A DNA stretch of 64,000 bases, from assembly GCF_026151205.1 (NCBI RefSeq), contig NC_087083.1, forward strand, positions 12,956,944 to 13,020,943, given 5' to 3'. The notes below the pieces were generated by a model that saw only the letters and a program-made list of their open reading frames with translations, had not been told where the DNA came from and did no database searches. Numbering within the stretch: the first letter of the stretch is position 1; each line of letters begins with the position of its first letter. Both the position numbers and the translations under genes were made by a program. The stretch comes from Bolinopsis microptera. Its lineage: Eukaryota > Ctenophora > Tentaculata > Lobata > Bolinopsidae. Positions 1,056-18,567 of the stretch are shown piece by piece.

Positions 1056-3340
1056 TCATTCAGTATTTTTCTTCGGGAACCTCCGTTCATCGACCTTATT
1101 TAAAAACCGTCCAATGTCTCTAATAGTTGTTGAGTCGTCGAAGATTTCTCCCGGTTCTTCTCTCATTACTAACAGGTCCCTCGTTCGTTGATGCAGGTTT
1201 TTGCGTAGGTCTTCGTATAGGGGGCATTCGTAGAGGATGTGATGCTCATCTTCTATCACTGGATAGGCCCCTGGTAGCTCATAGAGAAGATCTAACAAGT
1301 CATCGTCATTTGAGCAGCAATGTCTGCAGGCCCGATGTTTTATGTTAAACCGCTTTTTGCCGTAGCGACCAGTTTCAACGTTAAAGCGGTGGGAGCTGCT
1401 TCTGAATTGCGCGATCTTCTTTGAGCAGTTAGGTTTAAGATCAAGGGCTAGATACGTCTCTTGAGCAAACTTTCTCTTCACTAAGTTGTAGAATGATAGT
1501 TTTCTGTTAGATGTCCTTTCTGTTTCCCATGAGTTTATAAACCACTTTTGCAAACTCTTTCTAATCTGGCTTGGTCTTAATCCTTGGTTTCTCTCTGATG
1601 CCTCGATGGTTTCTTGCATCTGCTCGAGAGTGGAGAACCAGCTCAGGTTTAGGGTCGCCTGCTCTTCGAAAGCGTGTCTAGCAAAGCAGTCACGACCGTC
1701 TACAACCATTTGTTCAAGTCTTTCTTTGTAGTTAAACACTTGCTTTGATAGCGTGATGCCTAGTGGATGCCTGCCTGTGTCACCCCATATCGCAGCATTG
1801 GATGTTGACTTCCTCACCCCTAAGGTCCATTTCAAAAGAGACAGATGAAAGTTCTCTAGAGGGTCCCTGGCAATGAGTGTACACAGGTTTCCTGTTTCTG
1901 GTGTGGTGCTCGTGTTTGTGGGGAAGTTGCGGAACAGAGCTGTGCTTGGCAGCCACACTTGGCAACCATACGACACCACAGGTACAATAAGTGTATCATA
2001 TAGCTTGAACAGTATAGATTTCCTGATGTGGCGGGTATCAATGTAGCTTTTCAAAGAGAAATAACTTCTTAATGCTTTTTGCCTCAGCTTTTGTTGTGTT
2101 AGCTTAAGTGATCCGCTCAGAGTAAATGTAATGCCAAGGTAACAGTACTCTCTCCCGGAGGGGATCTGTTGTTCTCCCAGTTTGAACTCATGACTTTCCT
2201 TCAGATGCCTTCCTGTTGGGTTAAACACAAGGACTGAAGTTTTTCCAATGTTTACTGTCAGGCCCCATTCTGAGCAGTAATTGTTTAGGACATCAAGCAT
2301 TTGTTGAAGACTGTGTTTGTTGAGGGCTAGAAGGACAAGGTCGTCTGCCCATAGCAGATGAGTTATATCTGTATCATTTAGGACAGGGACTTTCACTCCT
2401 TCGATGTTGTTGAGATCATGTGAAAGCTGGTGGACAAAGCATTTAAACAGTTCAGGGGACATGGGGTGTCCTTGCTCGGTACCACATAATATGTCGATCT
2501 TCTGTGACAGCTTGTCTAGTAGCTTCACTTTGGCTGAGGAGTTTGAGTACATGAACTTAATGCACTCAAAGAATCTCCCTTGAATACCCATTTTCCACAA
2601 CTTGTATAGGAGTGCCTCACGACAGATGGAATCAAACGCTTTGGCATAATCGACAAAGCATGTGTATAGCCTTTGGCGTTTCTTGGTGACATACTTTTCC
2701 ACGCAGGTTGAAAGTGTGAAAATGTGGTCTGCTGTCTGTGCGTCTTTACAGAAACCTAGTTGGTTGGCTGTATCAGGATCACATTGATCACGGAATGATA
2801 TCAATCTTTTCAGCAATATGCTTGCAAAGAGCTTTCCGAGATTGCTCGCTACAGCGATGGCTCTGTAGTTGTTTGGATCATAGATATCACCTTTTTTGTG
2901 TAGTGGTGTAACTACTGATGAAGTCCATGGGTAAATTGATAGGCTTAGGCAGTGGTTGAAGAGGTTGAGGACTGCTTTGAGCATGGATCGTGTTGAGGCT
3001 TTGAAGAATTCATTAGAAATTAGATCTTCGGAAACTGCCTTTCCTTTTTTAGTGGCCTTAATGCAAGCACACAGCTCTTCCATCTTTATATCTTGATCCA
3101 AAAGCTTGGTCAGGTCGTCACAAATGTTGTTTTTCTGCATCTTTGACTGTAGCTCTGCGATCTTAGAGTCTTTGATGTTCTTTTTGCCGTAAAGTTCACT
3201 GAAGAACTTGCAAAAGTTGATCATATCGAAGGCATCAAGACTGGTTGCAGGCGATTTTGTATTAATATGAACATAATATTCTGAGGTCCCCAGGTAAGCT
3301 AATTTGTAATTGATCCTAGCTAGCGCTAACAGTAACTGCG
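1056..3340 (-). CDS. Non-LTR retrotransposon reverse transcriptase, 5'-truncated
   Basis: The ORF from the first Met (3224) is 722 residues, and the same frame stays open upstream to about 3340, where the GCGCTGGCT satellite begins. Reverse transcriptase blocks are clear: a fingers block with HKKGDIYDPNNYRAIAV (about residues 109-125), the metal-binding block FVDYAKAFDSI (190-200), a QGHPMSP loop (251-257) and the catalytic box LWADDLVLLA (291-300), a WADD variant of the usual YADD or FADD. The C-terminus carries a zinc-finger-like cluster CRHCC...HHILYECP, usual for LINE ORF2 tails. The apurinic endonuclease domain expected N-terminal is absent, so this copy is 5'-truncated and dead, although its RT reading frame is intact and the copy therefore probably fairly recent. 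The clade (CR1/jockey-like or other) was not resolved by eye. Confidence 0.9.
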
Positions 3341-3432
3341 CGCCGACGAGTGATATCGCAAATATTTAAAACCGATACTTTGGGATGGGGATCGATTACA
3401 TATTACGTAATCAGCTGAGGGGGAGGGGGTTT

Positions 3433-4515
3433 CTGGCCAGTGCTGGCTAGCGTTGGCTAGCGCTGATTAGCGCTGGTTAGCGCTGGCTAGCGCTGGCCAG
3501 CGCTGGTTAGTGCTGGCCAGCGCTGGCTGACGAGTAATATCGCAAGTTTATGATTTTGATACATTGGGCTGGCCAGCGATGGCTAGCGCTGGCTAGCGCT
3601 GGCTAGCGCTGGCTAGCGCTGGCTAGCGCTGGCTAGCGCTGGCTAGCGCTGGATAGCGCTGGATAGCGCTGGCCAGCGCTGGTTAGCGCTGGTTAGCGCT
3701 GGCCAGCGCTGGTTAGCGCTGGTTAGCGCTGGCTAGCGCTGGCTACCGCTGGCTAGCGCTGGCTAGCGCTGGCAGTGGCTAGCGCTGGCCAGCGCTGGCT
3801 GACGAGTAATATCGCAAGTATATGATTTTGATACATTGCGCTGGCCAGTGCTGGCTAGCGCTGGCTAGCGCTGGCTAGCGCTGGCTGACGAGTAATATCG
3901 CAATTATAATTATATGATTTTGATACATTGCGCTGGCCAGCGATGGCCAGCGCTGGCTAGCGCTGGCTAGCGCTGGCTAGCGCTGGCTAGCGATGGCTAG
4001 CGCTGGCCAGCGCTAGTTGTCGCTATCCAGCGCTATTTGTCGCGACAATTATCGAAAATTTATCGAAAATTTATCAAAAATTGATCTTTGCGCTGGTTAG
4101 CGCTGGATAGCGCTGGCCAGCGCTGGCTAGCGCTGGATAGCGACAACTAGCGCTGGCCAGCGCTAGTTGTCGCCATCCAGCGCTAGTTGTCGCTATCCAG
4201 CGCTAGCCAGCGCGCTAGTTATCGAACTGTTTTCTGCGATGGCCAGTTGCGCTGGCCATCGCAAACTATCGCGTGCGACAGTGTCGCATAGCCAGCGACA
4301 ACTAGCGCTGGATAGCGACAACCAGCGCTGGATGGCGACAACTAGCGCTGGATGGCGACAACTAGCGCTGGATAGCGACAATTATCGAACAAATATATTT
4401 AGCGCTGGCCAGCGTTATCCAGCGCTGGATAGCGACAACTAGCGCTGGATGGCGACAACTAGCGCTGGATAGCGCTGGATAGCGCTAGTTGTCGCCATCC
4501 AGCGCTAGTTGTCGC
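3433..4515. repeat. Satellite of 10-bp AGCGCTGGCT-type units
   Basis: Tandem degenerate decamers (GCTGGCTAGC, with CCAGC, TTAGC and ATAGC variants) fill the stretch. The array is interrupted at about 3528, 3790 and 3886 by a recurring 40-base non-decameric spacer containing GACGAGTAATATCGCAA and TGATTTTGATACATTG, giving a higher-order organisation. After about 4015 the orientation mixes (GCGACAACTAGCGCTGG) and the array becomes palindromic. Open frames here are trivial repeat translations, not genes. A related patch occurs at 24415-24515. Confidence 0.9.
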
Positions 4516-5446: not shown

Positions 5447-5605
5447 CTCTCTCAGAACTATACTGGTCACTCCTTACTTGTGCTTGGTTCTGCTCTCTCA
5501 GAGCTATACTGGTCACTCCTTACTTGGGATTGGTTCTGCTCTCTCAGAACTATACTGTTCACTCTTTACTTGGGCTTGGTTCTGCTCTCTCAGAGCTCAC
5601 TGTTC
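5447..5605. repeat. 46-bp tandem repeat, about 3.4 copies
   Basis: The unit begins CTCTCTCAGAACTATACTGG, continues with TCACTCCTTACTTG and ends GCTTGGTTCTG. It repeats head-to-tail with a few substitutions. The overlapping plus-strand open frames (5421-5674) are repeat translations. Confidence 0.85.
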
Positions 5606-6677: not shown

Positions 6678-6681
6678 ATTA
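6678..6681. repeat. Target site duplication ATTA (left)
   Basis: ATTA abuts the outer end of the 3' LTR and matches ATTA at 18396-18399 beyond the 5' LTR. A 4-bp duplication is typical of Ty3/gypsy integrases. Confidence 0.75.
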
Positions 6682-7396
6682 GTTTTGGCTACTGCCGTTG
6701 TGGTTTATTTATATTTTATATTTTAGATTTTAGAGCTTTTAATCAGTCTCAATTTATGGTTACTTGAACACAATTGATAGAGTCGTATAATAAGCCTTCA
6801 AATATAATAATACTTCCATTAATTCATTAAATAGATACCTTCGGAGATAAGGTTCATATATTGAGAGTCTTTTTATATTTCCGATTTGAATTGAACTTGT
6901 AGCTTATTTGAGAGCTACGTCGAATTGTAACTTGTTGCTATCGCAACTAAAATTCAGATATAGTCGGGCAGTGTTGTTGCCGTTAGGACGCATCGAAACA
7001 CGGCTTCTAGATCGCCGATGCGTGGCCTCGTTAATGCTCAATTGAAACTAATCAACACGGAACTATGTACCCTAGATCATTTGAAGGTCCGTATATTTTG
7101 AAAGTTTTTCCGGACTAATGACCAACACCCTGGATCATTTGAGTAGACCCGTTATCGGTGTTTTATATTTTGAAAGTTTCACTGGACTAATGACCAAAGT
7201 CACTGTAGCTGTGCCTCTAAGAGTTTTACGGGTTAATTCAATTAACTGTTTCAATCCGTAAAATAAATTTGACTTGGAGGTATACTAAAACTTTGAGTTC
7301 TCAAGAGAAATGGATTCGACAAATTCAGCCAAATGAACGGAACTTTAGCAAAGAACCACCTATAATTAAAGAGTCTTGTTGGTCCGAGAGGCCAAC
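6682..7396 (-). repeat. 3' LTR (715 bp)
   Basis: Identical by eye to 17681-18395. In element sense the LTR starts GTTGGCC and ends GCCAAAAC, a short GTT...AAC inverted terminus rather than the usual TG...CA. An AATAAA hexamer lies near its downstream end (plus-strand TTTATT about 6704-6709) and could serve polyadenylation. Confidence 0.92.
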
Positions 7397-7413
7397 ACGA
7401 TCCCCTTTTTCAT
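7397..7413 (-). other. Polypurine tract
   Basis: In element sense the bases just before the 3' LTR read GAAAAAGGGGATCGT, a purine run suited to priming plus-strand DNA synthesis. Longer purine-rich runs (GAAGAA and GAAAA type) occur at about 7490-7520, 7745-7805 and 7915-7945 and might act as accessory tracts. Confidence 0.65.
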
Positions 7414-7747
7414 AGAGTTTTTAATTTGATCATTTCACCGATTAGCCGATTCGCCAACCGAGGGCTTACTCGTACTATTCTAATGAAATATTTCTTCTTC
7501 TTCTTCGTCTTCTTCTTTTCTTCTATTAAATTTTCCTTGACATCCTTAAATTTTAAGACTCTGAATTTTAGAACCTAGGTCTCCTAATTATAATCATCAT
7601 CTAACACCAAAGTTTTCCTCTCCTTCAAATAGGAGAATATTTACTATAATTTAGCCATTAGGGCTGATCAACATTTCTTAAAACTGTTAACATATATTAA
7701 TACCTAATTCGCCATTAGGGCCGCTCACCACTATTACAAGTAGTATC

Positions 7748-7781
<34 letters not shown>

Positions 7782-7833
7782 CTTCCTTTCCTTTCCTTTT
7801 CTTTGGTCTTCTTTCTTCGACGACAACGGGGGT

Positions 7834-7990
7834 CAGGTTACGCCCTGATTGCGATGCTTTTAAAGTCGGGTTACGTCCCGGTAACGAATTGCTACAATTA
7901 TAATTCTTTCCATTCCCTCTTCTTTCTTCTTTCTTCTTCTTCTCAACGGGGGTTACGTCCCGATACGAAACAGATTCGGGTTACGTCCCG
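7834..7990 (-). promoter_or_regulatory. Four copies of a small stem-loop in the element 3' UTR
   Basis: At 7834-7847, 7867-7880, 7947-7962 and 7977-7990 a 4-bp stem (CGGG/CCCG) closes a loop TTACGT as read on the plus strand. The first copy has CAGG/CCTG with loop TTACGC, so both arms changed together and pairing is kept. The second-to-last copy has two extra G residues. They lie between F-box 2 and the 3' LTR within purine-rich sequence (element sense), a place where transport, packaging or stability elements would sit. The function is inferred only. Confidence 0.55.
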
Positions 7991-8554
7991 ATAACGTTGC
8001 GTCTACGGTCTTCGTAGGAAATGTTCCTGTGCAGAGAGGGGATACGGTTGCGATCCAGAATCTCAATAGACCGGCTAAACGAGAAGATCTACTAGCTTGT
8101 AATTTTCTATTCAAGAACTATTTAAGAACCTATGAAATAACTTGATCATAACCCCTGGATGGGCCATTTTGGTCAGTAGACTTCAATAAACTTAAAAGGC
8201 TCTGAAATGGTACTAAATTAATAGTCCTTTGACAAACTACTTTCAATTTATCGGATATTTAACTTATTTGCCTTTTAACTTATTCTTACTTATTAATTTA
8301 ATTAATTTCTTACTTAACTTAATAAATGTTTAACTTATTGAAGTCTTATAATAACTTTCACAATTTAAACTGTATACATATATTTATTATTTAGGATCTC
8401 AGTTGGGCTGAGTTCGATCCTTTACTTATCTAACTTCCTCATCTTTAAACCTGCCCGTTTTCAGTTTTATATTTTAAGTTTCAAATTTTTCAATATTTAC
8501 ATTTTTCATCATTCTTTATCTAAATGCAGATTCACGCATAGTTATGCGATGAAC

Positions 8555-9235
8555 TCATTTACCGTATTGCTTATCTTCGTATTTCATCATTTTACTGATT
8601 TCTTTTATTTTCTCTTCTGTCATTGTAATAGACAACCAGGTTCCATAAGCTTTACAGTATTGGTACTTTAAATAATAATCGAATTTGCATTCCATCTTAA
8701 TAATTGATTTTTCGATTCTTGACAATTTCGTCCATGACTCGTGTTTATACTTTCCCCAACGTTCTAGGATAACCCAGTCCGATTCATTTGGGAATAATGA
8801 CTTGTATTTTTCAAATGTTAGACATCTAGTTCTGACAAAACGAGCATAACATTTCTTTTGTCCTAATACTGCTGCATTATACGCTCCTCTCATGGTTAGG
8901 AGTTTTATCGCGAATTTTCCAATATTCGTTTGTATCCTGGTCCAATACATCTCGTTCTCCATTAGAATGTCAAAGAGATAATATGTTTCATAATTATAGA
9001 AGCTGAAGAGATCTGGATATCCACTTGTTGTGTCTCGCAAATATTGTGAGACGATTTTCCCCATCCTTTTGCAAATTAACCTGGCTTTGAGTAAATCACG
9101 TAGATTCAGCCTTGTCAAAATAATATGCCATAGTTCAATAGGTAGATTACAGTTGGAAACTGATTTGACTTCTTTAATGGATAGATTTTGAATTTCTTCT
9201 GTTTTTGAAGGTATCTCTTCTGATGTATTTTCCAT
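8555..9235 (-). CDS. F-box protein 2 of the retroelement
   Basis: A 226-residue ORF with its own ATG in a good context (GCAAATGG). After an acidic N-terminus, residues 31-67 form an F-box: LPIELWHIILTRL, then LRDLLKARLICKRM and IVSQYLRD, with the canonical LP, the paired Leu/Ile positions and the C-K-R turn. F-box domains bind Skp1 and recruit substrates to SCF ubiquitin ligases. The rest (about 75-226) has no recognised repeat domain (no WD40, LRR or Kelch) but is strongly similar to the C-terminal part of F-box 1: FYNYET..L, IGKFAIKLLTMRGAY, RFVRTRCL and KSIIKMECKF. It is the last gene before the 3' LTR and probably needs a spliced mRNA. The substrate is unknown. Known viral F-box proteins (polerovirus P0, nanovirus Clink) degrade host silencing or cell-cycle factors, so host defence is one possible target. 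Confidence 0.8.
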   Translation of the reverse strand: MENTSEEIPSKTEEIQNLSIKEVKSVSNCNLPIELWHIILTRLNLRDLLKARLICKRMGKIVSQYLRDTTSGYPDLFSFYNYETYYLFDILMENEMYWTRIQTNIGKFAIKLLTMRGAYNAAVLGQKKCYARFVRTRCLTFEKYKSLFPNESDWVILERWGKYKHESWTKLSRIEKSIIKMECKFDYYLKYQYCKAYGTWLSITMTEEKIKEISKMMKYEDKQYGK

Positions 9236-9405
9236 TTGCTTTGCTGATCAATATGTGGTTAGAAAACTTTAATTAAAGTGATAATGGAAATGACGAAAGA
9301 GCCTGTTTCTATAATTTTGAACCCGTTGGTGAGTTGTGATATTACGTTTGACATATTACGTTTGATTTACATTTTACATTTTACATTTTCCTTTTTACGG
9401 TTTGA

Positions 9406-10354
9406 TTACCCTATTAGAACTTCAATCGGGGGTCTATATTTTATAGCTTGAAGAAGATTGAAGTTTTTATTCTCTTCGGTTTTCAGCATTTTGCCTATTC
9501 TTTGGATCTTTTCCCGATTCGTAGTTATCGGTAGAGACGTACCATATTTATTCATATATAGTTTCGTTAAGAAAGTTTGGAACTTGCATTCCATTTTAAT
9601 GCATGATTTTTCCAATGGGGAAATATCCGCCCAAGAATTCTTCTTATATTCCTTCCATCTTATGATCACTTCGTCGTCAGACGCTTTAGGAGTGAAGCTT
9701 CTTAGCCGGTCCTTGAAAGTATACAATGGTAGACACCGTGTTCTTAAAAACCTCAAGTATGGTTTTTCCACTTTATTGATGGCGCTGCAGTACACCCCTT
9801 TCATGATCATGTATTTCATGGCAAACTTTCCAATTTTAGTTTTCATATTCGTCCAACACATTTGATCTTCTATAAGTATTTCCGTTAAATAGAACGTTTC
9901 GTAACTATAAAATTTAAAATTTTCCATTATTACATTGGTAGGGTTCCGCAAGTAATCCTTCACCAAACTACTGAATCGTTTTATTTAATTCTCGTACTTT
10001 CAGTAATTGCTTGATGGTGAGGTAATTAAATATCATCACCCATATTTCTATTGGTATTTCTGTTTCTCGTTTCGTCTCTTCTTTGTGTAGTTGTTCCAAA
10101 TTATCATCGTTAGAAGCGTCATGCTCGATGTTCAATTCCTTCAGTTCCTCGTGTATATCCGAAGCACTATTTGAGTCTATTGTATTCTTTGATTCAATTT
10201 CCCAGTCGCTGACATCTTGAACACTATCATTTACATTTTCGTAATGTAAATTTACAGCTTTCTTTACCTCTTTTTCTGGCACGTTTCCACAATTTATATT
10301 TTCGCAATTTAGGTTCCAGTTCAAGTTTAAATTTGATTCTTCTACTTCGTCTAG
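9406..10354 (-). CDS. F-box protein 1, fused downstream of Env by readthrough, with one internal +1 shift
   Basis: The first part (10354-9968) is in the same frame as Env, directly after its stop, and has no ATG before the F-box. An acidic linker is followed by an F-box beginning EIPIEIWVMIFNYL, then IKQLLKVREL. The frame closes at TAG 9968. The domain's second half, including VKDYLRNPTN, FKFYSYETFYL, IGKFAMKYMIMKGVY and RFLRTRCLPL, lies in the +1 frame down to 9406 and aligns throughout with F-box 2. The two frames overlap by about 15 bases containing ATAAAACG (9977-9984). Either a +1 ribosomal shift or a one-base A-run insertion (mutation or assembly error) explains this. If read through from Env, the F-box would sit on the cytosolic side as an Env tail. 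F-box 1 and F-box 2 are ancient paralogues, not recent copies. Confidence 0.7.
9977..9984 (-). promoter_or_regulatory. Candidate +1 frameshift site ATAAAACG in F-box 1
   Basis: In the upstream frame the codons are AAT AAA ACG. Slipping one base forward at AAA re-pairs perfectly (AAA-A) and continues with CGA in the frame of the C-terminal half. The overlap between frames is so short that the shift must occur here. The same octamer in the same codon phase occurs at 13649-13656. A false extra A in the run is the competing explanation. Confidence 0.4.
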
Positions 10355-10357
10355 TCA
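10351..10357 (-). promoter_or_regulatory. UGA-CUAG stop-codon readthrough context
   Basis: The Env stop is TGA followed immediately by CTAG. UGA-CUA(G) is the best-known efficient readthrough context in animal mRNAs and alphavirus-type viruses. The frame remains open after it for about 128 codons into the F-box, which lacks an ATG of its own. Context, frame and lack of start agree, but translation itself cannot be seen. Confidence 0.6.
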
Positions 10358-12460
10358 TAAGACTCTGTTTTTCACATCGTCCACTGAATACACCTTAGTT
10401 GTACTAGGCGCTCTTTGTCGCAGTCCTTCGCTATATTCACCACTGAAATTAGTTTCATCTACTCCAGATTCTTCATCTTTTCCGCTTTCTAAAAGTTCGT
10501 CTTTATTTTGTTCTTCTAATTCTATGTCCTTTTCTACTTTCCTTGTCCTGAACCGTTTTTTCCAATAGCTGTATAGAAGGAAGATTCCCACTATAATGCT
10601 AATCATTACTGTTAAAATTCCTATAAAATTCACAAGAGTTAGATCCTTCGTCAGATTTAGTCCGATTCTTTCAGATTTGATATGTTTAACAATTTCTTTT
10701 TGTTGAACTACATGAGCACTGAGCTGACTTAGATTCGTTCTTTTCAGCAATTCATTTTCAGATATCAAATATTCGTCCCATTTTTCGGGGTTCGTCAACT
10801 CTAGTTCTTTCGTAAACATTGGCTCTTTAATTGATCTAATGATGTAGTTGTCGGCAACTATTTGATAATATTTATCGTAGTTGAGAAATTTCACCGTACT
10901 TCCATTTGAAATATCCACGTATTCAGTAGGACTTTCTTGCGTCGATGCTTTCAAATGATGTATTGCTCTGACCATGACACCAGAACTAGTCTGAATATTG
11001 CGCATTTGACATTTTTCCAAATTCGTTTTACATATTCTTGGGTCGGCGTTTAAACACCTTGCTTTCTTTGCAGATTCTTCGTTTTCTTTATTCCCCAGAC
11101 ATAATTTTATCCCACTTCGGACCTCGCAATTATTTTCGTTTTCCAATTCGTAGAATTCGCCATCTTTTTGATACACGTGATTCGGTATATCCAGACGCAT
11201 GCACTGAGTACCATTGACCAAACCTACTTGGTTCACTTGATATAGGATGTACATTTCATCACTTTTTATTTGAGGTATCGATATAATCACATGAAGATTG
11301 AAAAATTTTCCATCTTTCTTTACATCAGCTAGCCACATTCTGCCTAGACGATAGAATAAAGGGACGTTGTCAACATAAATTGCGTCCTCCATTCTTTTAT
11401 GTTTCAACAAATCCAGTATATTCGTTTCATTAAATATTGTGGGACTCACGGGACCTTTTAATTGGCCGTCTATCAAATCTTTCGAGAGAGTGTATATATA
11501 CTCTTTCCAGTCTTGAAGCTGATTTCTTTTCAGGTTATACCGAATTATACTCATCATTTCACAGCTTAATTCTTCCAATGACTCCTGGGAATTTAATTCC
11601 AAAGTTTTGTACATTTTCAACATACCTTCATGAAATTCCGTTGCTGATTCAATATAGTCCGTCATTTCATTACGGAAATCCTGAAATTGGTCGTAGAACT
11701 CGTTAAGTTGAGTTGAAATTTTCGATTGTTCATAGAGACTGAACACTCCAGTAAGAATAGAACCGGCAAAAAATCCAAGGGCTGCTTGAACAAATCTTTT
11801 CTGTTTCCTGTTTTTCGTCAATTCAGTAAGTTTTTCTATTTTTGTCATTGTTTCATTGACAAAATTTTCATTTGATTTTTCAAACAGAATATTGATTCTG
11901 GACTGATATTGTCCACAGAATTTATTCTTATCTTCGACCATGCATCGCATGTCGAATTCGCTTGAACCTTTAGAATCCTGATGATACGTAGGGATGGTTT
12001 CTCTCAGAATGCAGATCACGACGTCAGATCTATATTCCACACCGAAAGCTTTACATTTCGGTATTTTGATACATTCTCTGAAACATCGTTCCGCCATTTG
12101 TCTAGAATCATTTTCGAGGTCTTTATCCACCGAATTCTCGATTTCCTTTATTACATTTTGGCGATCTCCGATTTTGTTGTGCACATGATTACATTTTACG
12201 TGGGTTAGCAGTCCCCAAATTACATTTTCGTCAATGTTGCATATGTTTTCGCATTCATTTACATTTTTCATTGGATTTCTTATCTTTATAAATGTTGATA
12301 TCAGCACAGGGGTAATCTCCGGTGCGACGATTCCGATTCCTTGTAAGATGAGACCAGTCTTTTCCTGGTGGTAATTGATTTCTTCAATCATTCCTTTTGA
12401 AAGTGCTATGCAGCAACTGATAAAGAAGATAACTTGTTGATAATATCCTTTCTTCCGCAT
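10355..12460 (-). CDS. env: Env: class-I fusion glycoprotein, baculovirus F/errantivirus type
   Basis: 701 residues from an ATG. A hydrophobic signal peptide covers about residues 7-21. The N-terminal subunit holds a cysteine cluster (about 126-151: CFREC, then KCKAFGVEY and CILRE) resembling a PAN/apple module, unusual in this family. A furin-type site RKQKR (218-222) precedes a hydrophobic fusion peptide (223-243, FVQAALGFFAG...), followed by a heptad-like helical region. Later a block of the pattern of insect F proteins is seen (ISIPQIKSDEMYILYQV, then a Cys-rich loop). A transmembrane helix spans about 607-633, followed by a 68-residue acidic cytoplasmic tail. Length and order fit F-type proteins that fuse membranes. 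No ATG-proximal leader is visible, so expression probably uses a spliced RNA. The stop is UGA-CUAG, with the F-box frame behind it. The ORF is uninterrupted. Confidence 0.82.
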   Translation of the reverse strand: MRKKGYYQQVIFFISCCIALSKGMIEEINYHQEKTGLILQGIGIVAPEITPVLISTFIKIRNPMKNVNECENICNIDENVIWGLLTHVKCNHVHNKIGDRQNVIKEIENSVDKDLENDSRQMAERCFRECIKIPKCKAFGVEYRSDVVICILRETIPTYHQDSKGSSEFDMRCMVEDKNKFCGQYQSRINILFEKSNENFVNETMTKIEKLTELTKNRKQKRFVQAALGFFAGSILTGVFSLYEQSKISTQLNEFYDQFQDFRNEMTDYIESATEFHEGMLKMYKTLELNSQESLEELSCEMMSIIRYNLKRNQLQDWKEYIYTLSKDLIDGQLKGPVSPTIFNETNILDLLKHKRMEDAIYVDNVPLFYRLGRMWLADVKKDGKFFNLHVIISIPQIKSDEMYILYQVNQVGLVNGTQCMRLDIPNHVYQKDGEFYELENENNCEVRSGIKLCLGNKENEESAKKARCLNADPRICKTNLEKCQMRNIQTSSGVMVRAIHHLKASTQESPTEYVDISNGSTVKFLNYDKYYQIVADNYIIRSIKEPMFTKELELTNPEKWDEYLISENELLKRTNLSQLSAHVVQQKEIVKHIKSERIGLNLTKDLTLVNFIGILTVMISIIVGIFLLYSYWKKRFRTRKVEKDIELEEQNKDELLESGKDEESGVDETNFSGEYSEGLRQRAPSTTKVYSVDDVKNRVL

Positions 12461-13410
12461 CCTTGCTATTTAAGTATTTAGATTAACCACCATTAACCGG
12501 TCATATTATAATATATTTTTATAACTGTAACTTTAGTTACAAAGATACAAGATTCTAAATTACTACGTGCCTAATTTGGTTTTTGTGTTTTATTAGAAAA
12601 GTATACAAAACAGGTCATGCTAAAGTAATTATTTTGGTTCCAGACAACAATCACGTTCAATTTGCCTTGGATCTAAAGAGTCTTTTGGCACATTTAAGCT
12701 CAGATTTGGCACAAATCGTGTACGCAAATAAATAAATAAATTAAGAACTAAATAAATAAATAAATAAATAAAATTTTCCGGGTGACGTCATTTAATCTAG
12801 TTCCCATTCCATTTGGCCGGCCTGCATTTAAAATATGGTTTGTTTCATGGCGTTTCATATCTCACATTATTTTAATCTTATATTTTCATAGCGCTTGCTT
12901 ATCACTTATTTAAATATCATGCCATATTGTGCATTACTTGTTACTCATCTTGATCATATCTTTGCGCATACACTTCATTCATAATCTAGCTATCTTGTGC
13001 ACTTTCATTTTATATGATTGCGCTTTATTATCTTTCATAACATAATCTTTGTCATACATAGTGCATTTACTTTAATATCATTGCATACAAATACTTTCAT
13101 ATTGCGCATATTTATTTCTTATTACATATCATATTGTGCACTTGTTATTCATTATCATTGTTTCATTGTCAATCATAATATAGTTATACTGTCCTAGTAC
13201 TCATACTTCATATATATATATACTTTATTTATAGTAGTTCCTTCAAATAATGTTCATCATACATAGTAGCCTTGTTACTACTTATCCTTATTTACTAACA
13301 TAATTAAAATTCCAGCTAATTAATTCTTTATGTTGATGGAATATCTAAGGAGAATATCTAAATATACACATTTACTACAGTACATATAAAGGACAGTGTC
13401 AATCTAGGAA
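12461..13410 (-). other. Non-coding spacer upstream of Env with degenerate ATATTGTGCA repeats
   Basis: About 950 bases between the first glycoprotein and Env contain no ORF. From 12920 to 13145 a motif of the type ATATTGTGCA or ATTGCGCAT recurs about every 35 bases (for example 12925, 12962, 12990, 13098, 13130). A TA run and an AAATAAAT microsatellite (about 12725-12772) are also present. It is the natural place for a splice acceptor or internal promoter for Env. No site could be fixed by eye. Confidence 0.45.
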
Positions 13411-15034
13411 TTAAACTTCCGTATCATCCTGACCATCCCGGTCAATTGGGCCCTCATTAACTGGGATCCGTCCTCTGGTGCGATCGACGCATTTACTTAT
13501 AATTAATTCTACTATAATGTACCTCCAGATTAGATACCATACGGCGATGCTTTGTACGTTGCTAATAATAGCAAATATAATCGTAAACTTACTTTGTCCG
13601 AATATTCCAAATAATTCCCGCCAATTGGATTTTACATTTCGTTTTTTCCGTTTTATCAATCGTCAAATGGTTAATTTCATTTTCCATTTCCTTCAGGATT
13701 AAATCGCTAATATCATGGTGCTTCAATTCAGACGTATTATATATCCAATTTTGAAAATCTTGAGACATGGGTATTCCAGTAAGTTTCACTCTGTCTATAC
13801 TTTCTACCTTTGAAAGGTTTACCCTCATTTCGTGTAACCCATGAGCACTTTGAGCGAGAATCGTATTATTCACCATCATATATTGGGTCGTAGAGTTGTG
13901 GCAATCTATCTCTATTGCGGTAGGCATTATCATGTTATACTTAGGATCTACATAGCCCTCAATATATTCATCATTTTCCGGCAGATTATATTCTATTTTA
14001 AACCCGTTATAACACCTGTTGGTGTCGTTTATGAATCGATAATGTTGAATTTGCAGACAAGGATAAATCATTAACAATTTTCCGACCAATTTAGCCTTTA
14101 CATCCGTCCTATTTAACTTCCATTGTACGTAATCAGTTGGATCGATTTTCGCTAGGATTCTCTCAGTCCCATATATGTCGTTGTACACGTTACACAAATA
14201 CTCCGTTTGCGCCAACGGACTTTTAATTAATTCCAAAAGATAATTAAATTTATTGACGAATTCCTCTCTTATTGCTTCGATCGCATTTTCATTATTCGAA
14301 TTTACATTTTCAAGATTAAATTGATACGGGGCTGGGCTTCCCTTTATTTGGAAATCCCTATCGATCCAAGTGTTACCCGGATTTTTCTCCGGCAGATTAA
14401 ATGACATGCTCAACTCGGGTACGAGTAGCTTATTTTCGATTTGTGTTGCATTGAACTGCCCCACAGGCAAATAAGCCCTTTTTACATTTTCAATCACGTT
14501 CCAAGTGACGTGTTTTCCGTTATGCGTTAGACAGTACCCTGAACTATAGTCGCAACCCTCCATATTTGACAAAGAGGACGTAAATGTATCCTCATGATTC
14601 GCTATTACTACTCCATCCGAGAAATAACAAGATGTCGTAGTCTTAGATCTGTGTTCCAGCCACTTGAAGTCACATTTAAAATTATTAACCAATTTCGTCT
14701 GATACTCGCCTTTTTCGTTAATACATTTTCGATTTTCAATCAAATATTTAGCCCTTTCTGGGTTTACGGTGATTACTCTTTTACTTTGACCCGTGATTGT
14801 TTCTTCTCCCACAAAATTCATATATGATTCACAGGTTCGAGACATTATTACCAGAGCATTGGCTGATGATTCGTATTCCGCGATGTTACGTTTCGAGATG
14901 GAAATATTCCATTTGACGTAATTTTTATTTTTACATTTTAAATTTTCTGATAGCTTGTATAGCTTTCCCCAATATTCTTCAGAGCAGAGTAGTAATGTGG
15001 TTTGTGCTATCGATATGGAGACCAGTATTATCAC
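13411..15034 (-). CDS. Glycoprotein ORF3 with membrane anchor in the +1 frame
   Basis: The main frame (15034-13589, 481 codons) has no ATG at its front; the frame opens only about 25 codons further upstream and begins with a hydrophobic, signal-like stretch (VIILVSISIAQTTLLL), so a spliced leader or non-AUG start is likely. It is rich in cysteines and N-glycosylation sequons (NAT, NRT, NDT, NST, NNT, NLS, NTS), as in a secreted or viral attachment/fusion protein. The C-terminal block with LCNVYNDIYG, DPTDYVQW and NRCYNGFKIEY faintly recalls chuvirus or Bel/Pao-type glycoproteins, a tentative resemblance from memory. The frame ends without a membrane anchor. An overlapping +1 frame (to 13411) supplies basic residues, a hydrophobic helix (FTIIFAIISNVQSIAVWYLI) and a short acidic tail. 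A +1 shift, splicing, or a one-base run error would join them. Confidence 0.6.
13649..13656 (-). promoter_or_regulatory. Candidate +1 frameshift site ATAAAACG in ORF3
   Basis: Codons GAT AAA ACG in the main frame; the alternative frame continues as AAA-A-CGG. The octamer and codon phase are the same as at 9977-9984. A second A-run (GGAAAAAACG) lies a few bases downstream within the 70-base overlap and could equally hold the shift or a sequencing error. Confidence 0.35.
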
Positions 15035-15147
15035 TGTCCTTGCAAACGACTTATACCTATAGGTATATTTATTTATAACCCCGTTAATTTGGTGCTGTCC
15101 GGTAACACGTTAAATACATGATTTTTTGGATTTTGAGTATTAATAAA

Positions 15148-16086
15148 TTAATTACTAAGTATATCACATTCAAGAAATTCGTCCTCGCTGGACAGATAAG
15201 TCCGGTTGCTAGAGGGGTTTCCCTCTGAAGAGTCTTTCTTTTTCTTCTTTTTGGGCTCTTTCCTTTTTTCATTTTTCCTTCTATGAGCCGTGGTACGTAC
15301 CGGGTCCTCTGACCAGACTTCTGGTTCTGCTTCATTGTCCTCTTCTCTCGATTCTGGCAACTGTGTTTCTTCCATTTCTATGTCGAGATTTTCAGGGGGC
15401 GGGGGAGGAGGTGGTGAACTTGAAGGAGTGCTGACCCGGCTCCAGTCCACATCGCTACCTGTGGGTGTGATGTTTTCATATTCAGGTTCCAGATTGGTCC
15501 TTTCCTCTTGCCTCTCTGATTTTTTACAAGTTTCTTCCGTAGTTCTGAACATTGGTGTCACAAAGTCATCACCCTTCAATAACAGCGATTTATAATTGAT
15601 GACCACTCTTTTGTCCTCTAAAAACTGGTTTCCGAGGATCAATGATTCGTTGATATCACATACTGTGACATTTACGTCACATATTTTGGTCTCGATCTTC
15701 ATTTGTAGAGTTATGCAACCATAAACTTTTATGGGCGACCCAGTTGCTGTTTTGAACTTTTGATCAGTACATTCTAGGTGCACGTCTTTGAATATTGACT
15801 GAAACATGTCATGTGACATGCAGTTCTTTATCGCCCCGGTATCAATCATTGCTAATATCAGTTTATCCCCGAGTTTAACTTTAATGTATATATTCGAACT
15901 GCCATCGTTGATTTTATTTACATTTTCGCCACTTTCGCCAATCTCTTTATTGCTATTTTCTTGGATTTCACAATTTTCTTGATTTTCGTAATTTTCTTGA
16001 TTTTCATATTGTGCTTCCAACATCGGGTCTTCTTCCTCAGTACCCTCATTTATTGTATCGACGTTGAAAGCGCAAATTAGTTTAAA
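15148..16086 (-). CDS. pro: Aspartic protease (retropepsin) in the -1 frame after Gag
   Basis: The frame overlaps the end of gag and stays open upstream of its first ATG (16023), so it is read as the C-terminal part of a Gag-Pro fusion. Counting from that ATG, the catalytic motif is IDTGAIKNC (D61) and the second hallmark is LILGNQFL (about 128-135), both standard for retropepsins, which work as dimers to process Gag. Upstream is an N/E/Q repeat (YENQENYENQEN). After the protease come a proline run (about SSPPPPPPPE), acidic segments and a lysine run, then a stop. In ordinary Ty3-like elements reverse transcriptase would follow; here it is missing and glycoprotein ORF3 begins about 40-110 bases later. 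Confidence 0.85.
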   Translation of the reverse strand, partial: FKLICAFNVDTINEGTEEEDPMLEAQYENQENYENQENCEIQENSNKEIGESGENVNKINDGSSNIYIKVKLGDKLILAMIDTGAIKNCMSHDMFQSIFKDVHLECTDQKFKTATGSPIKVYGCITLQMKIETKICDVNVTVCDINESLILGNQFLEDKRVVINYKSLLLKGDDFVTPMFRTTEETCKKSERQEERTNLEPEYENITPTGSDVDWSRVSTPSSSPPPPPPPENLDIEMEETQLPESREEDNEAEPEVWSEDPVRTTAHRRKNEKRKEPKKKKKKDSSEGNPSSNRTYLSSEDEFLECDILSN

Positions 16087-17585
16087 TTCGATCGCTTTTT
16101 CATGAATTCTTCTCTTTCCTGTTTATCAAGTTCTTGATTATTTAGTTCCATAAATCTTCTCCATCGATCCTTTCCATCGATATGTTGTTGCTGATATTCC
16201 TGCTCTACTGCTCGCGGTCTATATTCCTGAGATTGATTCCCATTGTAATTATTTTCGAATTTCTTTTGTATTTCTCGATAATTGCCTCTGCTTTGCGATG
16301 GTTTAGCACTATTCCTTGCCATTTGATTCAGTCTAGTGTAACAGTCTTCTATTTTATGACCTTTTCTTCCACAAAATATACAAATCGGTGTTTGTCTGAA
16401 AAAGCACTCCTCCGTATTGTGATTATTATATTGACAAATATTACAGAATTTGTTTCTTCGATTCGAGTTTCGCATTTGATTATTTCTTTGAAAATCGTTT
16501 CGTCGATCATAGTTTGGTGCTTGGTCGTTCCACTGATTATTGAAATTCTGTCTCTGATTTTGTTGGCGATTGAAGCTTGATCTCTGATTGTACTGACGAT
16601 CGAAATTTGGTCTTTGATAGTTTTGTCTATTAAAATTCGGCATCTGTCCATTCTGAATGGCGAACAGTTCTGTTTCTTCATCTTCGAATTTCACTTCTTT
16701 CTTTTCTACTTTAGGTTTGACACTTCGAAGTGCGTGTATAGCTTCTAAATCTAGCGCTTGACCATATGCTGTCGCGTAGTCGTTGGTCCCGTTTTTTATA
16801 ATTTCAAAACAGATTTGTTCAGACGCTAATCCGTTGATGAAACAGTCGTATAAAATCTGCGATTTAATTGTTGATTTTTCTGTGCCGTAACAACGCTCCG
16901 CCATGTCGTTAAGACGAGTTACAAAATCCGTGATTGATTCAGTCGGTTCTTGCTTTGCTGAGAATAATTTTGTTCTCCATTCTGCTTTCGAATTTGATCC
17001 CTCTATTGTTCGTACCAATTTTTCACAACAACTTTCAAAATCCAGCCTCTGCATTCTGTCGAAATTCAATGTGTCGACTTTTGATTGACATGTTTGATCC
17101 AAATAGGTAATTAATACATCCAATCTCTTGTTTTCTGGGATTTTCGATGCAGTCGCAAAATGTTGAAAATTCTTTAGCCATCGTTTAAAGTTTCCCCCGT
17201 GACGAAAGATGTCGGGTTTTCTTAGCGGTATATCTGATTTTCTATTTCCGTCCCATTTCTCCAGAAGCTCCAATTTTCCAGTTTTCTGTCCGTCAAGATA
17301 GGCTTTATCCATTTCCTGTTCTTTAAGCTGAGTTCGTTTGTCCAATTCATGTTGCATTCTTCTATATTCATTATCTAGCTTCTGATTAGTCTCGAGCATA
17401 TTATTATTTCGGTCCGATAAATCGTCTGCATATTTCTTCAAATCTTCGTTCTTCTTTGCAGTGTCTTTGACTGTATTTTTAAGTTTGTCGGCATATGTCT
17501 TCAGATCCTCATTTTTATCATTTATTTCATGTAGCTGCTTCTTCAAATTGTCTATTTCCTTCTTTGCATTGTCCAGTTCAGCCAT
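16077..17585 (-). CDS. gag: Gag polyprotein
   Basis: 502 residues from an ATG 75 bases inside the primer site. The N-terminus (about 1-100) is a strong coiled coil with heptads rich in K, E, N and L. The middle (about 115-290) has the retrotransposon capsid pattern, including a block with PTESITDFVTRLNDMAERCYG. A repetitive N/R/Q-rich basic stretch (about 315-375, repeats of QRxNFNRQ type) leads to two CCHC zinc knuckles, CNICQYNNHNTEEC (381-394) and CIFCGRKGHKIEDC (402-415), both C-x2-C-x4-H-x4-C, which bind nucleic acid. The frame is intact, with -1 shift to protease at its end. It would form the particle that packages the element RNA. Confidence 0.92.
   Translation of the reverse strand: MAELDNAKKEIDNLKKQLHEINDKNEDLKTYADKLKNTVKDTAKKNEDLKKYADDLSDRNNNMLETNQKLDNEYRRMQHELDKRTQLKEQEMDKAYLDGQKTGKLELLEKWDGNRKSDIPLRKPDIFRHGGNFKRWLKNFQHFATASKIPENKRLDVLITYLDQTCQSKVDTLNFDRMQRLDFESCCEKLVRTIEGSNSKAEWRTKLFSAKQEPTESITDFVTRLNDMAERCYGTEKSTIKSQILYDCFINGLASEQICFEIIKNGTNDYATAYGQALDLEAIHALRSVKPKVEKKEVKFEDEETELFAIQNGQMPNFNRQNYQRPNFDRQYNQRSSFNRQQNQRQNFNNQWNDQAPNYDRRNDFQRNNQMRNSNRRNKFCNICQYNNHNTEECFFRQTPICIFCGRKGHKIEDCYTRLNQMARNSAKPSQSRGNYREIQKKFENNYNGNQSQEYRPRAVEQEYQQQHIDGKDRWRRFMELNNQELDKQEREEFMKKRSNLN
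16080..16086 (-). promoter_or_regulatory. -1 frameshift slippery heptamer TTTAAAC
   Basis: In gag the last codons read AAT TTA AAC TAA. The heptamer T TTA AAC, the classical efficient -1 slippery site, ends exactly at the gag stop codon (16079-16077), and the -1 frame continues without a stop into the protease. A clear downstream hairpin was not found by eye; the adjoining stop codon may help. Confidence 0.8.
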
Positions 17586-17660
17586 TTTATTGAACTTGAT
17601 GTTTCAATGATTGAAGTTTGATGTTTCAGTAATTGAAGCTTGATATGAAGAGATCGTCAA

Positions 17661-17680
17661 TTCGAACCAGGAGGGCACCA
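17661..17680 (-). other. Primer binding site
   Basis: Directly inside the 5' LTR the element-sense bases read TGGTGCCCTCCTGGTTCGAA. TGG pairs with the CCA end of a tRNA. The segment resembles the 3' end of elongator tRNA-Met (acceptor ...GAGGGCA-CCA and T-loop TTCGAAC) with a few bases missing between them. Assignment of the tRNA is from memory and tentative. Confidence 0.7.
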
Positions 17681-18395
17681 GTTTTGGCTACTGCCGTTGT
17701 GGTTTATTTATATTTTATATTTTAGATTTTAGAGCTTTTAATCAGTCTCAATTTATGGTTACTTGAACACAATTGATAGAGTCGTATAATAAGCCTTCAA
17801 ATATAATAATACTTCCATTAATTCATTAAATAGATACCTTCGGAGATAAGGTTCATATATTGAGAGTCTTTTTATATTTCCGATTTGAATTGAACTTGTA
17901 GCTTATTTGAGAGCTACGTCGAATTGTAACTTGTTGCTATCGCAACTAAAATTCAGATATAGTCGGGCAGTGTTGTTGCCGTTAGGACGCATCGAAACAC
18001 GGCTTCTAGATCGCCGATGCGTGGCCTCGTTAATGCTCAATTGAAACTAATCAACACGGAACTATGTACCCTAGATCATTTGAAGGTCCGTATATTTTGA
18101 AAGTTTTTCCGGACTAATGACCAACACCCTGGATCATTTGAGTAGACCCGTTATCGGTGTTTTATATTTTGAAAGTTTCACTGGACTAATGACCAAAGTC
18201 ACTGTAGCTGTGCCTCTAAGAGTTTTACGGGTTAATTCAATTAACTGTTTCAATCCGTAAAATAAATTTGACTTGGAGGTATACTAAAACTTTGAGTTCT
18301 CAAGAGAAATGGATTCGACAAATTCAGCCAAATGAACGGAACTTTAGCAAAGAACCACCTATAATTAAAGAGTCTTGTTGGTCCGAGAGGCCAAC
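17681..18395 (-). repeat. 5' LTR (715 bp)
   Basis: Matches 6682-7396 base for base as far as I can read. It would carry the promoter for the genomic RNA; no convincing TATA box was picked out. It is flanked outside by the ATTA target duplication (18396-18399). Confidence 0.92.
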
Positions 18396-18567
18396 ATTAG
18401 GACTCTATAAAATAGGCTGACATTATAGTAACATAATATTAACGTAACAGTCTTTCTTCTATGTTTGAACGCCTTTAGTTTTCTGTTGAACTCTCGACAT
18501 CAACATTGCATAGTCGTGTCATCAAACCTTCTTTATATTTATGATAATTATGAATGAAATATATTAA

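What the first reader, a model, noticed from the sequence alone, without database searches (positions are those of the whole stretch)
6682..18395. Young LTR retroelement with two glycoproteins and two F-box genes but no reverse transcriptase or integrase
Seen: 715-bp LTRs with no visible difference, ATTA duplication, primer site, polypurine tract, intact gag, protease, glycoprotein frames and F-box frames, and no RT/RNase H/integrase motif between the LTRs. Known: env-bearing Ty3-like elements normally encode pol between protease and env; non-autonomous LTR elements normally lose env and accessory genes rather than pol. Inferred: a dependent element that keeps its own particle and entry functions and perhaps modifies the host through SCF ligases while borrowing pol.
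Basis: partly seen in the sequence, partly recalled or inferred. Interest (0 to 1): 0.95.

Follow-up and report, generated by a model that had tools for sequence, protein, structure and literature searches.

The report
Retrovirus-like element that lost its polymerase
This is a recently inserted retrovirus-like element whose copying enzymes were cut out, as they were by different cuts in its nine chromosomal siblings, while two entry glycoproteins and F-box genes stayed; one F-box seems to be made by reading through the envelope gene's stop codon.

Summary
The element is real: 715-bp LTRs with 0 differences, 4-bp target duplication, gag, protease, two glycoprotein genes, two F-box genes, no RT, RNase H or integrase. 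It is not a pol-less lineage. A sibling on contig C184 (99.7% identical over gag and protease) carries an open PR-RT-RNase H-IN frame up to the contig end. Ten of ten two-ended chromosomal copies lack RT/RH/IN, no two with the same breakpoints. They look like separate, young deleted proviruses of an autonomous Ty3-type retrovirus, probably made by template switching. In this copy the first glycoprotein and the second F-box are frameshifted.

Three things are unusual. (1) A class III (gB/Monjiviricetes-type) glycoprotein sits directly upstream of a class I F-type envelope in 23 of 24 loci found in this genome. (2) The envelope gene ends in UGA-CUA-G, a described high-readthrough context, in 10 of 10 copies; the second F-box follows in frame, without ATG for 106 codons.

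Envelope is open in 10 of 10 copies; its copy-specific amino-acid changes are depleted (6 seen, 23.8 expected).

The parts
6679..6682 (.). target-site duplication, left copy (TTAG)
6683..7397 (-). 3' LTR in the element's sense (element lies on the minus strand)
   Evidence: 0 differences to the other LTR
7400..7411 (-). polypurine tract next to the 3' LTR
   Evidence: sequence read directly
8555..9235 (-). F-box gene 1, 226 aa, own ATG, intact here; matched in 10 of 10 copies, broken in one of them (G)
9406..10354 (-). F-box gene 2, in the same frame as the envelope gene directly behind its stop; broken by a frameshift in this copy, 315-aa open frame in 8 siblings; first in-frame Met at codon 107
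10351..10357 (-). envelope stop codon in the readthrough context TGA CTA G, same in 10 of 10 copies
10355..12460 (-). class I F-type envelope glycoprotein (env2), 701 aa: RKQKR furin-like site, fusion-peptide-like stretch, C-terminal membrane anchor; PAN domain seen only in relatives; open in 10 of 10 copies
13411..15034 (-). class III (herpesvirus gB / Monjiviricetes-type) glycoprotein; frame broken in this copy into 13589-15034 and 13411-13659
15148..16122 (-). protease frame fused across the deletion to the tail of a downstream gene (zinc-ribbon protein in copy B)
15534..15536 (-). deletion scar: RT, RNase H and integrase missing here compared with sibling C184
16077..17585 (-). gag, 502 aa, coiled coil, PNMA/retrotransposon-gag core and CCHC-type fingers (fingers read by eye)
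16080..16086 (-). TTTAAAC, a slippery heptamer for -1 frameshifting just before the gag stop; the pol frame continues in -1
   Evidence: sequence read directly; role inferred
17663..17680 (-). primer-binding-site-like TGGTGCCCTCCTGGTTCG one base inside the 5' LTR; tRNA not identified
17682..18396 (-). 5' LTR in the element's sense
18397..18400 (.). target-site duplication, right copy (TTAG)

Best explanation
The element is a young, internally deleted provirus of an autonomous Ty3/gypsy-type retrovirus, not a member of a pol-less lineage. The parent's gene order, inferred from siblings none of which is complete, is LTR - gag - (-1 frameshift) - PR-RT-RNase H-IN - a zinc-ribbon gene - class III glycoprotein - class I F-type envelope (- UGA readthrough -) F-box2 - F-box1 - LTR. 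Shown: a sibling with gag and an open pol frame exists; ten two-ended copies lack RT/RH/IN, no two with the same breakpoints; the seven LTR pairs that could be compared are 0 to 0.7% diverged. Inferred: each deletion arose by template switching while a virus genome was reverse transcribed with Pol from an intact sibling, and the shortened DNA was then integrated by that sibling's integrase. Inferred from sequence, not shown: a minor fraction of envelope protein is extended through UGA-CUA-G into a cytosolic F-box domain, giving a membrane-anchored adaptor that would recruit an SCF ubiquitin ligase at the site of budding or entry; F-box1 would be the soluble version.
For: Pol-bearing sibling: C184:10055-15811 (L071), 99.7% identical to the window over its first 2146 bases (gag, protease), then a 1399-aa open frame to the contig end; RVT_1 E 1.4e-23, RT_RNaseH_2 3.6e-22, Integrase_H2C2 3.9e-14, rve 2.4e-10, all above curated cut-offs; closest solved structure Ty3 Gag-Pol, E 3.6e-67. 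Deletions: ten different left breakpoints and no shared pair; in the 9 copies where both edges can be placed (not B, whose right edge no other copy shows) the main junctions have overlaps of 0-6 nt or fillers of 12 and 22 nt; none of ten left edges is followed by GT. Two copies (I, J) still hold the protease-RT linker, residues up to 368 and 355 of the pol frame. Young and separate insertions: 14 substitutions in 7 LTR pairs, 4-bp duplications. Readthrough: TGA CTAG in 10 of 10 copies, 315-codon frame in register, no in-frame ATG for 106 codons; this context is named as the high-readthrough motif (PMC12233894 and PMC4359377, passages read).
Against: The pol-bearing copy is cut off by its contig end, so no complete intact copy was seen. 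Template switching is not distinguished from deletion after insertion by the junctions alone. Readthrough: no stable RNA structure follows the stop (z +1.26); the two relatives with an F-box-like ORF behind env (C3, C5) have a TAG stop without that context, and their F-box-like ORF has its own ATG in another frame; the F-boxes change at the neutral rate between copies; no expression data were available.
Confidence: 0.8

Rival explanations
1. One reading: a dependent lineage that keeps its own gag and glycoproteins and borrows pol.
For: Ten of ten two-ended copies lack RT/RH/IN. A sister family does this: four copies (C11:8.03M, C5:10.10M, C6:20.63M, C5:22.14M) share one gag-to-glycoprotein junction (501-bp junction probe matched end to end at 95-100% in 4 of 4); C11 and C5:10.10M have open gag (372 aa), gB-like (519 aa) and env (905 aa) frames; a fifth copy (C4) has 5.9 kb incl. 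a pol start at that place.
Against: In the window family no two copies share a deletion, only A and J of ten keep an intact gag, and a pol-bearing sibling exists.
Confidence: 0.08
2. The deletions are over-represented by assembly: identical full-length copies of >=15 kb cannot be resolved and are missing or collapsed, so only structurally unique deleted copies are placed on chromosomes.
For: The only pol-bearing copy found lies on a 15.8-kb contig that ends inside it; contig C129 begins inside an LTR and continues into DNA without match to the window element; their target-site bases differ, so at least two such ends exist.
Against: It does not explain why the deletions of all ten copies spare env2 and the F-box side, and related families are assembled with long pol frames (C3:6114599, 1472 aa).
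Confidence: 0.35
3. Env is kept by selection on the host: pol-less proviruses that still make envelope protect against the infectious parent by receptor interference.
For: env2 is open in 10 of 10 copies; copy-specific amino-acid changes in env2 6 versus 23.8 expected from LTR divergence (P 1.6e-5), while F-box1 (7 vs 7.7) and F-box2 (10 vs 10.8) sit at the neutral rate; under evenly spread right-hand breakpoints 10 of 10 sparing env2 has P 1e-4 to 1.5e-3.
Against: Few changes, test chosen after env2's constancy had been seen, LTR rate (7 pairs) taken as neutral; no expression or protection data. Env in a source lineage is under selection too, although that does not lower the changes expected after insertion.
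Confidence: 0.25
4. The deletions are introns: spliced env mRNAs were reverse transcribed.
For: Five of ten left breakpoints cluster at internal 66-121 around the gag start (P 1e-6 if even), two right breakpoints lie at 14700/14701.
Against: No GT after any of ten left breakpoints; no shared pair.
Confidence: 0.03

Closest known systems
Metaviridae, insect errantiviruses / insect ERVs (gypsy, ZAM; F-type Env; PMC12992720, passages)
   Same: LTRs, 4-bp duplication, gag, PR-RT-RH-IN order in the sibling, Ty3 Gag-Pol as nearest solved structure, F-type env with furin-like site and fusion peptide
   Different: a second, class III glycoprotein between pol and env, a zinc-ribbon gene, F-box genes behind env with a readthrough-type stop; this copy lacks RT/RH/IN
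Anakin, the BEL/Pao element with a chuvirus glycoprotein in mosquitoes (PMC7642597, passages), and type III glycoproteins mentioned for gypsy elements (PMC13172572, passages)
   Same: an LTR retroelement carrying a Monjiviricetes/gB-type class III glycoprotein
   Different: here Ty3-type pol, and the class III protein comes together with a class I F-type env; whether the gypsy elements of PMC13172572 have both I did not see
Deleted, trans-mobilised retroviral families such as mouse IAP delta types, ETn/VL30, and deleted HIV proviruses (recalled)
   Same: large internal deletions removing pol while LTRs, leader and polypurine tract stay
   Different: every copy has its own deletion and all ten keep an open env
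Jingchuvirales-glycoprotein EVEs of Hymenoptera and ants (PMC10084718, abstract, Results, Discussion; PMC6540820, passages)
   Same: possibly the same kind of glycoprotein, reported next to gypsy fragments; not compared directly here
   Different: PMC10084718 found no clear evidence of capture by gypsy elements; here the glycoprotein is a regular gene of LTR-flanked elements

Membership tests
Ty3/gypsy (Metaviridae) | LTRs and short constant target-site duplication | tested here: met
   715-bp LTRs, 4 bp, 7 of 8 sites perfect
Ty3/gypsy (Metaviridae) | pol with PR-RT-RNase H-integrase in that order, nearest to Ty3 | tested here: met
   only in sibling C184; in the window copy RT/RH/IN are absent
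Errantivirus-like (F-type env) | class I F-type envelope with furin site and fusion peptide | tested here: met
   RKQKR and fusion-peptide-like stretch read directly; Fusion_gly best E 4.7e-10 in 2 of 11 aligned members, not in the window protein itself
Errantivirus-like (F-type env) | tRNA primer-binding site | tested here: inconclusive
   TGG-starting stretch one base inside the LTR; tRNA not identified, no tRNA gene in the window
Class III fusion glycoproteins (herpesvirus gB / Monjiviricetes) | sequence-profile match to solved class III proteins | tested here: met
   profile of 10 sequences: the nine matches with E below 1e-6 are herpesvirus gB (some listed as GP110, BALF4, ORF8: gB names as recalled), best E 1.1e-10; BDV_G best 7e-13 in 4 and Monjiviricetes_fusion best 1.4e-11 in 2 of 10 members; the window protein alone matches Glycoprotein_B below its cut-off and nothing in PDB by phmmer
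Class III fusion glycoproteins (herpesvirus gB / Monjiviricetes) | class III fold | not tested
Non-autonomous LTR lineage (dependent family) | several copies share one pol-less structure | tested here: not met
   window family: no shared junction among ten copies. Sister family X: met in 4 of 5 copies
TRIM/LARD | no coding capacity | tested here: not met
   gag, env2 and F-box1 frames are open
SCF substrate adaptors (F-box proteins) | F-box domain | tested here: met
   Pfam PF00646 above cut-off for F-box1 and for sibling F-box2
SCF substrate adaptors (F-box proteins) | binding to Skp1 and ubiquitination of a target | not testable with these tools
   needs protein work

The most novel reading that the evidence does not exclude
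This virus lineage makes a membrane-anchored ubiquitin-ligase adaptor: a fixed fraction of its class I envelope protein is extended by programmed UGA-CUA-G readthrough into a cytosolic F-box domain, used beside a second, class III fusion protein; and its pol-deleted proviruses are being kept by selection on their envelope gene, i.e. caught early in becoming antiviral interference genes.
Probability: 0.25. Interest if true: 0.85.

Novelty: new variant of a known kind. Interest (0 to 1): 0.62.

Why it matters
Retroelements as a rule use one fusogen (recalled); a Ty3-type lineage that keeps a class III and a class I fusogen side by side over families diverged to about 19-37% identity poses a clear question about entry. 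An F-box joined to an envelope through a readthrough stop would be a new way for a retrovirus to bring a ubiquitin ligase to a membrane. The two pol-less situations (ten one-off deletions in one family, one fixed and amplified deletion in its sister) make it possible to ask when a deleted provirus becomes a dependent lineage. PMC10084718 states that capture of jingchuvirus glycoproteins by gypsy elements was not evident and asks for new studies; if the class III protein here is of that kind, the 23 of 24 loci answer it for this genome.

Tried and rejected
Splicing as the source of the deletions: rejected, no GT after any of ten left breakpoints. C184 and C129 as two ends of one insertion: rejected, their target-site bases differ. 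Structure of F-box1: AlphaFold model with mean pLDDT 39, not used. Structure of the class III glycoprotein: not accepted. RNA structure behind the env stop: none. Relatives of the class III glycoprotein in viral contigs: none confirmed. tRNA for the primer site: not identified. Termination-reinitiation at the env stop (ATGA): gives a short ORF in another frame, not F-box2 (read). Literature searches for F-box genes in LTR elements or envelope readthrough listed no such report among the rows shown; the most relevant paper (Chary and Hayashi 2025, eLife, on envelope-carrying retrotransposons) is not held, so whether it describes two glycoproteins in one element is unknown to me. The host was not identified; insect/ant is a guess from the literature on similar glycoproteins.
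Full report
What is there. The element lies on the minus strand of window 6679-18400. Its LTRs (6683-7397 and 17682-18396) show 0 differences over 715 bp. Comparing eight insertion sites fixes the ends as TGTTGG...CCAAAA with a 4-bp duplication, TTAG here on the plus strand; seven of eight sites are perfect, one (copy H) has a mismatch. The genes in the element's sense are gag (502 aa), a protease frame in -1 with the slippery heptamer TTTAAAC just before the gag stop, a first glycoprotein, a second glycoprotein, and two F-box genes. The first glycoprotein frame (565 aa open in siblings B and J) and the second F-box (315 aa open in 8 siblings) are broken by frameshifts in this copy.

No pol inside. 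tblastn with the pol frame of a sibling finds only residues 1-196 in the element; RT begins at residue 405. The protease frame runs on across a scar at 15535 into the tail of a downstream gene; in copy B the upstream part of that gene codes for a double zinc ribbon (Pfam DZR E 2.4e-7). That this gene follows pol is inferred, since the pol-bearing contig ends before it.

Siblings. The LTR has 30 matches in the 264.7-Mb genome (such counts are lower bounds there). Twenty-three belong to ten copies with both ends (A, the window copy, to J; in C, F and J one LTR is interrupted); seven are single, partial or at contig ends: C8, C184, C129, C2:4493437, C7:6259956 and two relatives at 90-92% (C7:6142952, C11:2581066), whose internal parts I did not examine for pol. 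In 10 of 10 two-ended copies, the pieces covering the stretch between the 5' LTR and env2 lack RT, RNase H and integrase (pieces). No two copies share their breakpoints: left breakpoints at internal 2146, 66, 101, 99, 121, 1164, 114, 374, 2663 and 2624 (A to J), right breakpoints from behind pol to inside the first glycoprotein gene. B's right edge cannot be placed, because no other copy shows the sequence before it. In the other nine the main junctions overlap by 0-6 nt or hold fillers of 12 (F) and 22 nt (H). No left breakpoint is followed by GT, so these are not introns. Copies I and J still carry the protease-RT linker. D and G each have a second deletion, C and I share a 66-67-bp one, and E and F each carry an unrelated insertion (97.9% alike, at different places).

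The missing gene exists. Contig C184 (15.8 kb) holds an LTR, gag and a 1399-aa open frame up to the contig end with PR, RT, RNase H and integrase (RVT_1 E 1.4e-23, RT_RNaseH_2 3.6e-22, Integrase_H2C2 3.9e-14, rve 2.4e-10), closest among solved structures to Ty3 Gag-Pol (E 3.6e-67). It is 99.7% identical to the window over 2146 bp of leader, gag and protease. The parent was thus an autonomous Ty3-type element of at least about 15 kb (my addition of the pieces). Since the copy is cut by the contig end, no complete copy was seen.

How it came about. Seven LTR pairs could be compared (not C, F, J): 0, 2, 2, 2, 2, 1 and 5 substitutions over 705-716 bp for A, B, D, E, G, H, I. Ten young insertions with ten different deletions are best explained by deletion during reverse transcription of single genomes with Pol from an intact sibling, as in deleted proviruses of retroviruses (recalled). 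This is inference. Two features are not random under an even model: five of ten left breakpoints lie at internal 66-121 around the gag start (P 1e-6), and no right breakpoint enters env2 (P 1.3e-4, up to 1.5e-3 if 2 kb of unseen sequence is allowed for). An assembly bias against long identical copies may also contribute: C184 and C129 are broken at the element.

Two glycoproteins. The first matches Pfam Glycoprotein_B at E 5.4e-5, below its curated cut-off, and nothing in PDB on its own. A profile of ten sequences matches solved proteins with nine herpesvirus gB entries below E 1e-6 (best 1.1e-10), and members match BDV_G (best 7e-13, 4 of 10) and Monjiviricetes_fusion (best 1.4e-11, 2 of 10): a class III fusion protein by sequence. 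The second is a class I F-type envelope: RKQKR site, fusion peptide and membrane anchor by eye; Fusion_gly best E 4.7e-10 in 2 of 11 and PAN best E 8.9e-7 in 2 of 11 aligned members, neither in the window protein itself, and a weak profile match to a microneme protein (E 3.8e-4). In this genome the search found 24 loci encoding the class III protein, 9 of them in the window family; 23 have the F-type env directly downstream on the same strand. Of the 27 env loci found outside the window family, 14 have it and 13 do not (counted). Pairwise distances of the two proteins agree across seven loci (Mantel 4 of 5040 permutations; Spearman 0.53; one near-identical pair drives the Pearson value of 0.98). 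The two genes seem to have been inherited together for long.

F-boxes and readthrough. F-box1 and sibling F-box2 pass the Pfam cut-off and are 42% identical to each other. A related family (C3:6.12M, env 36% identical) also has an F-box-like gene behind env (28% identical; Pfam E 0.018, below cut-off). In the window family env2 ends in TGA CTA G in 10 of 10 copies (window and nine siblings). The F-box2 frame begins with the next codon, runs for 315 codons in the intact siblings and has no ATG for 106. By chance TGA with CTAG has P 0.001 for a given stop, and 315 open codons P 2e-9; the missing ATG alone is not telling (P 0.15). UGA CUA G is named as the high-readthrough motif in PMC12233894 and PMC4359377 (passages; both on human contexts as far as I read). 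One public protein (P0010, 55% identical to env2) ends in 32 residues resembling the end of F-box2 (41%, E 2.4e-5 in a five-sequence comparison), as if the two frames had been fused there. Against it: no RNA structure behind the stop, the C3 and C5 relatives do not share the arrangement, and there are no expression data. The most likely working is a minor envelope form with a cytosolic F-box that recruits an SCF ligase; the target is unknown.

Selection. Changes seen in one copy only: env2 7 silent and 6 amino-acid changes over ten copies, where LTR divergence predicts 5.8 and 23.8 (P for the latter 1.6e-5); F-box1 2 and 7 (1.9 and 7.7 expected); F-box2 5 and 10 (2.5 and 10.8); a piece of the class III gene in nine copies 4 and 2 (1.7 and 6.6; P 0.04). 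Left out of these counts were sites shared by several copies: one silent in env2, three amino-acid sites in F-box2, two in the class III piece. Fisher tests of env2 amino-acid changes give P 7e-4 against the pooled other classes, P 0.005 against the F-boxes, P 0.006 against env2's own silent changes. So env2, not the F-boxes, appears constrained even in pol-less copies. Numbers are small and the test was chosen after env2's constancy had been seen. Interference with the infectious parent is one possible reason.

The sister family. Loci C11:8.03M, C5:10.10M, C6:20.63M and C5:22.14M have gag directly followed by the class III gene and env, without room for protease or pol. A 501-bp probe across the junction is matched end to end in 4 of 4 (95-100%) and split by 5.9 kb in a fifth copy, C4, which has a pol start. 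LTRs at both ends were found for C11, C5:10.10M, C6 and C4; C5:22.14M has one. The two LTRs of a copy score alike against the C11 LTR (1581/1577, 1473/1465, 1297/1295, 1499/1496 bits) while the copies are 96-98% identical to it, so they look like separate recent insertions; their sequences could not be fetched to date them directly. Open frames of gag, gB-like and env were seen in C11 and C5:10.10M; C5:22.14M is damaged and C6's class III gene is split. Here a pol-less form has multiplied.

What is known. F-type insect ERVs (PMC12992720, passages), the BEL/Pao-chuvirus hybrid Anakin (PMC7642597, passages) and type III glycoproteins in gypsy elements (PMC13172572, passages) are in print. PMC10084718 (abstract, Results, Discussion read) reports no clear capture of such glycoproteins by gypsy elements. 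I found no report of both fusogens in one element, of F-box genes in such elements or of envelope readthrough in the rows that the searches listed above showed, but one key paper could not be read.

Noticed in passing
G000 C11:8033150-8044000, C5:10095500-10106300, C6:20635000-20645000, C5:22138700-22147555; pol-bearing relative C4:13556180-13576460: Sister LTR family with a fixed pol-less gag + class III glycoprotein + F-type env structure in 4 of 5 copies, LTR pairs scoring alike within copies.
   Followed up: partly
L062:62-520 (copy B): Double-zinc-ribbon protein gene upstream of the class III glycoprotein (Pfam DZR E 2.4e-7); probably another accessory gene of the parent.
   Followed up: partly
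window 1056-3365 (-): 769-aa open frame with RVT_1 (E 2.5e-28), a reverse transcriptase outside the element, probably of the non-LTR kind.
   Followed up: no
window 4113-4220 (+): Rfam match to microRNA precursor MIR474 (59.4 bits, gathering 48), a plant family as I recall; in an animal-like genome probably a chance hairpin.
   Followed up: no
L065 and L066 (copies E and F): The same unrelated DNA (97.9% alike over 578 bp) is inserted at two different places of two sibling copies, perhaps a further young mobile element.
   Followed up: no
L091:900-1143 and 22 other places: The gag 3' part of the sister family is 71-82% identical in DNA (18 places at 76-77%) to many loci without a class III match nearby, possibly a family that lends pol.
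   Followed up: no
window 5500-5591: 46-bp tandem repeat just left of the element.
   Followed up: no
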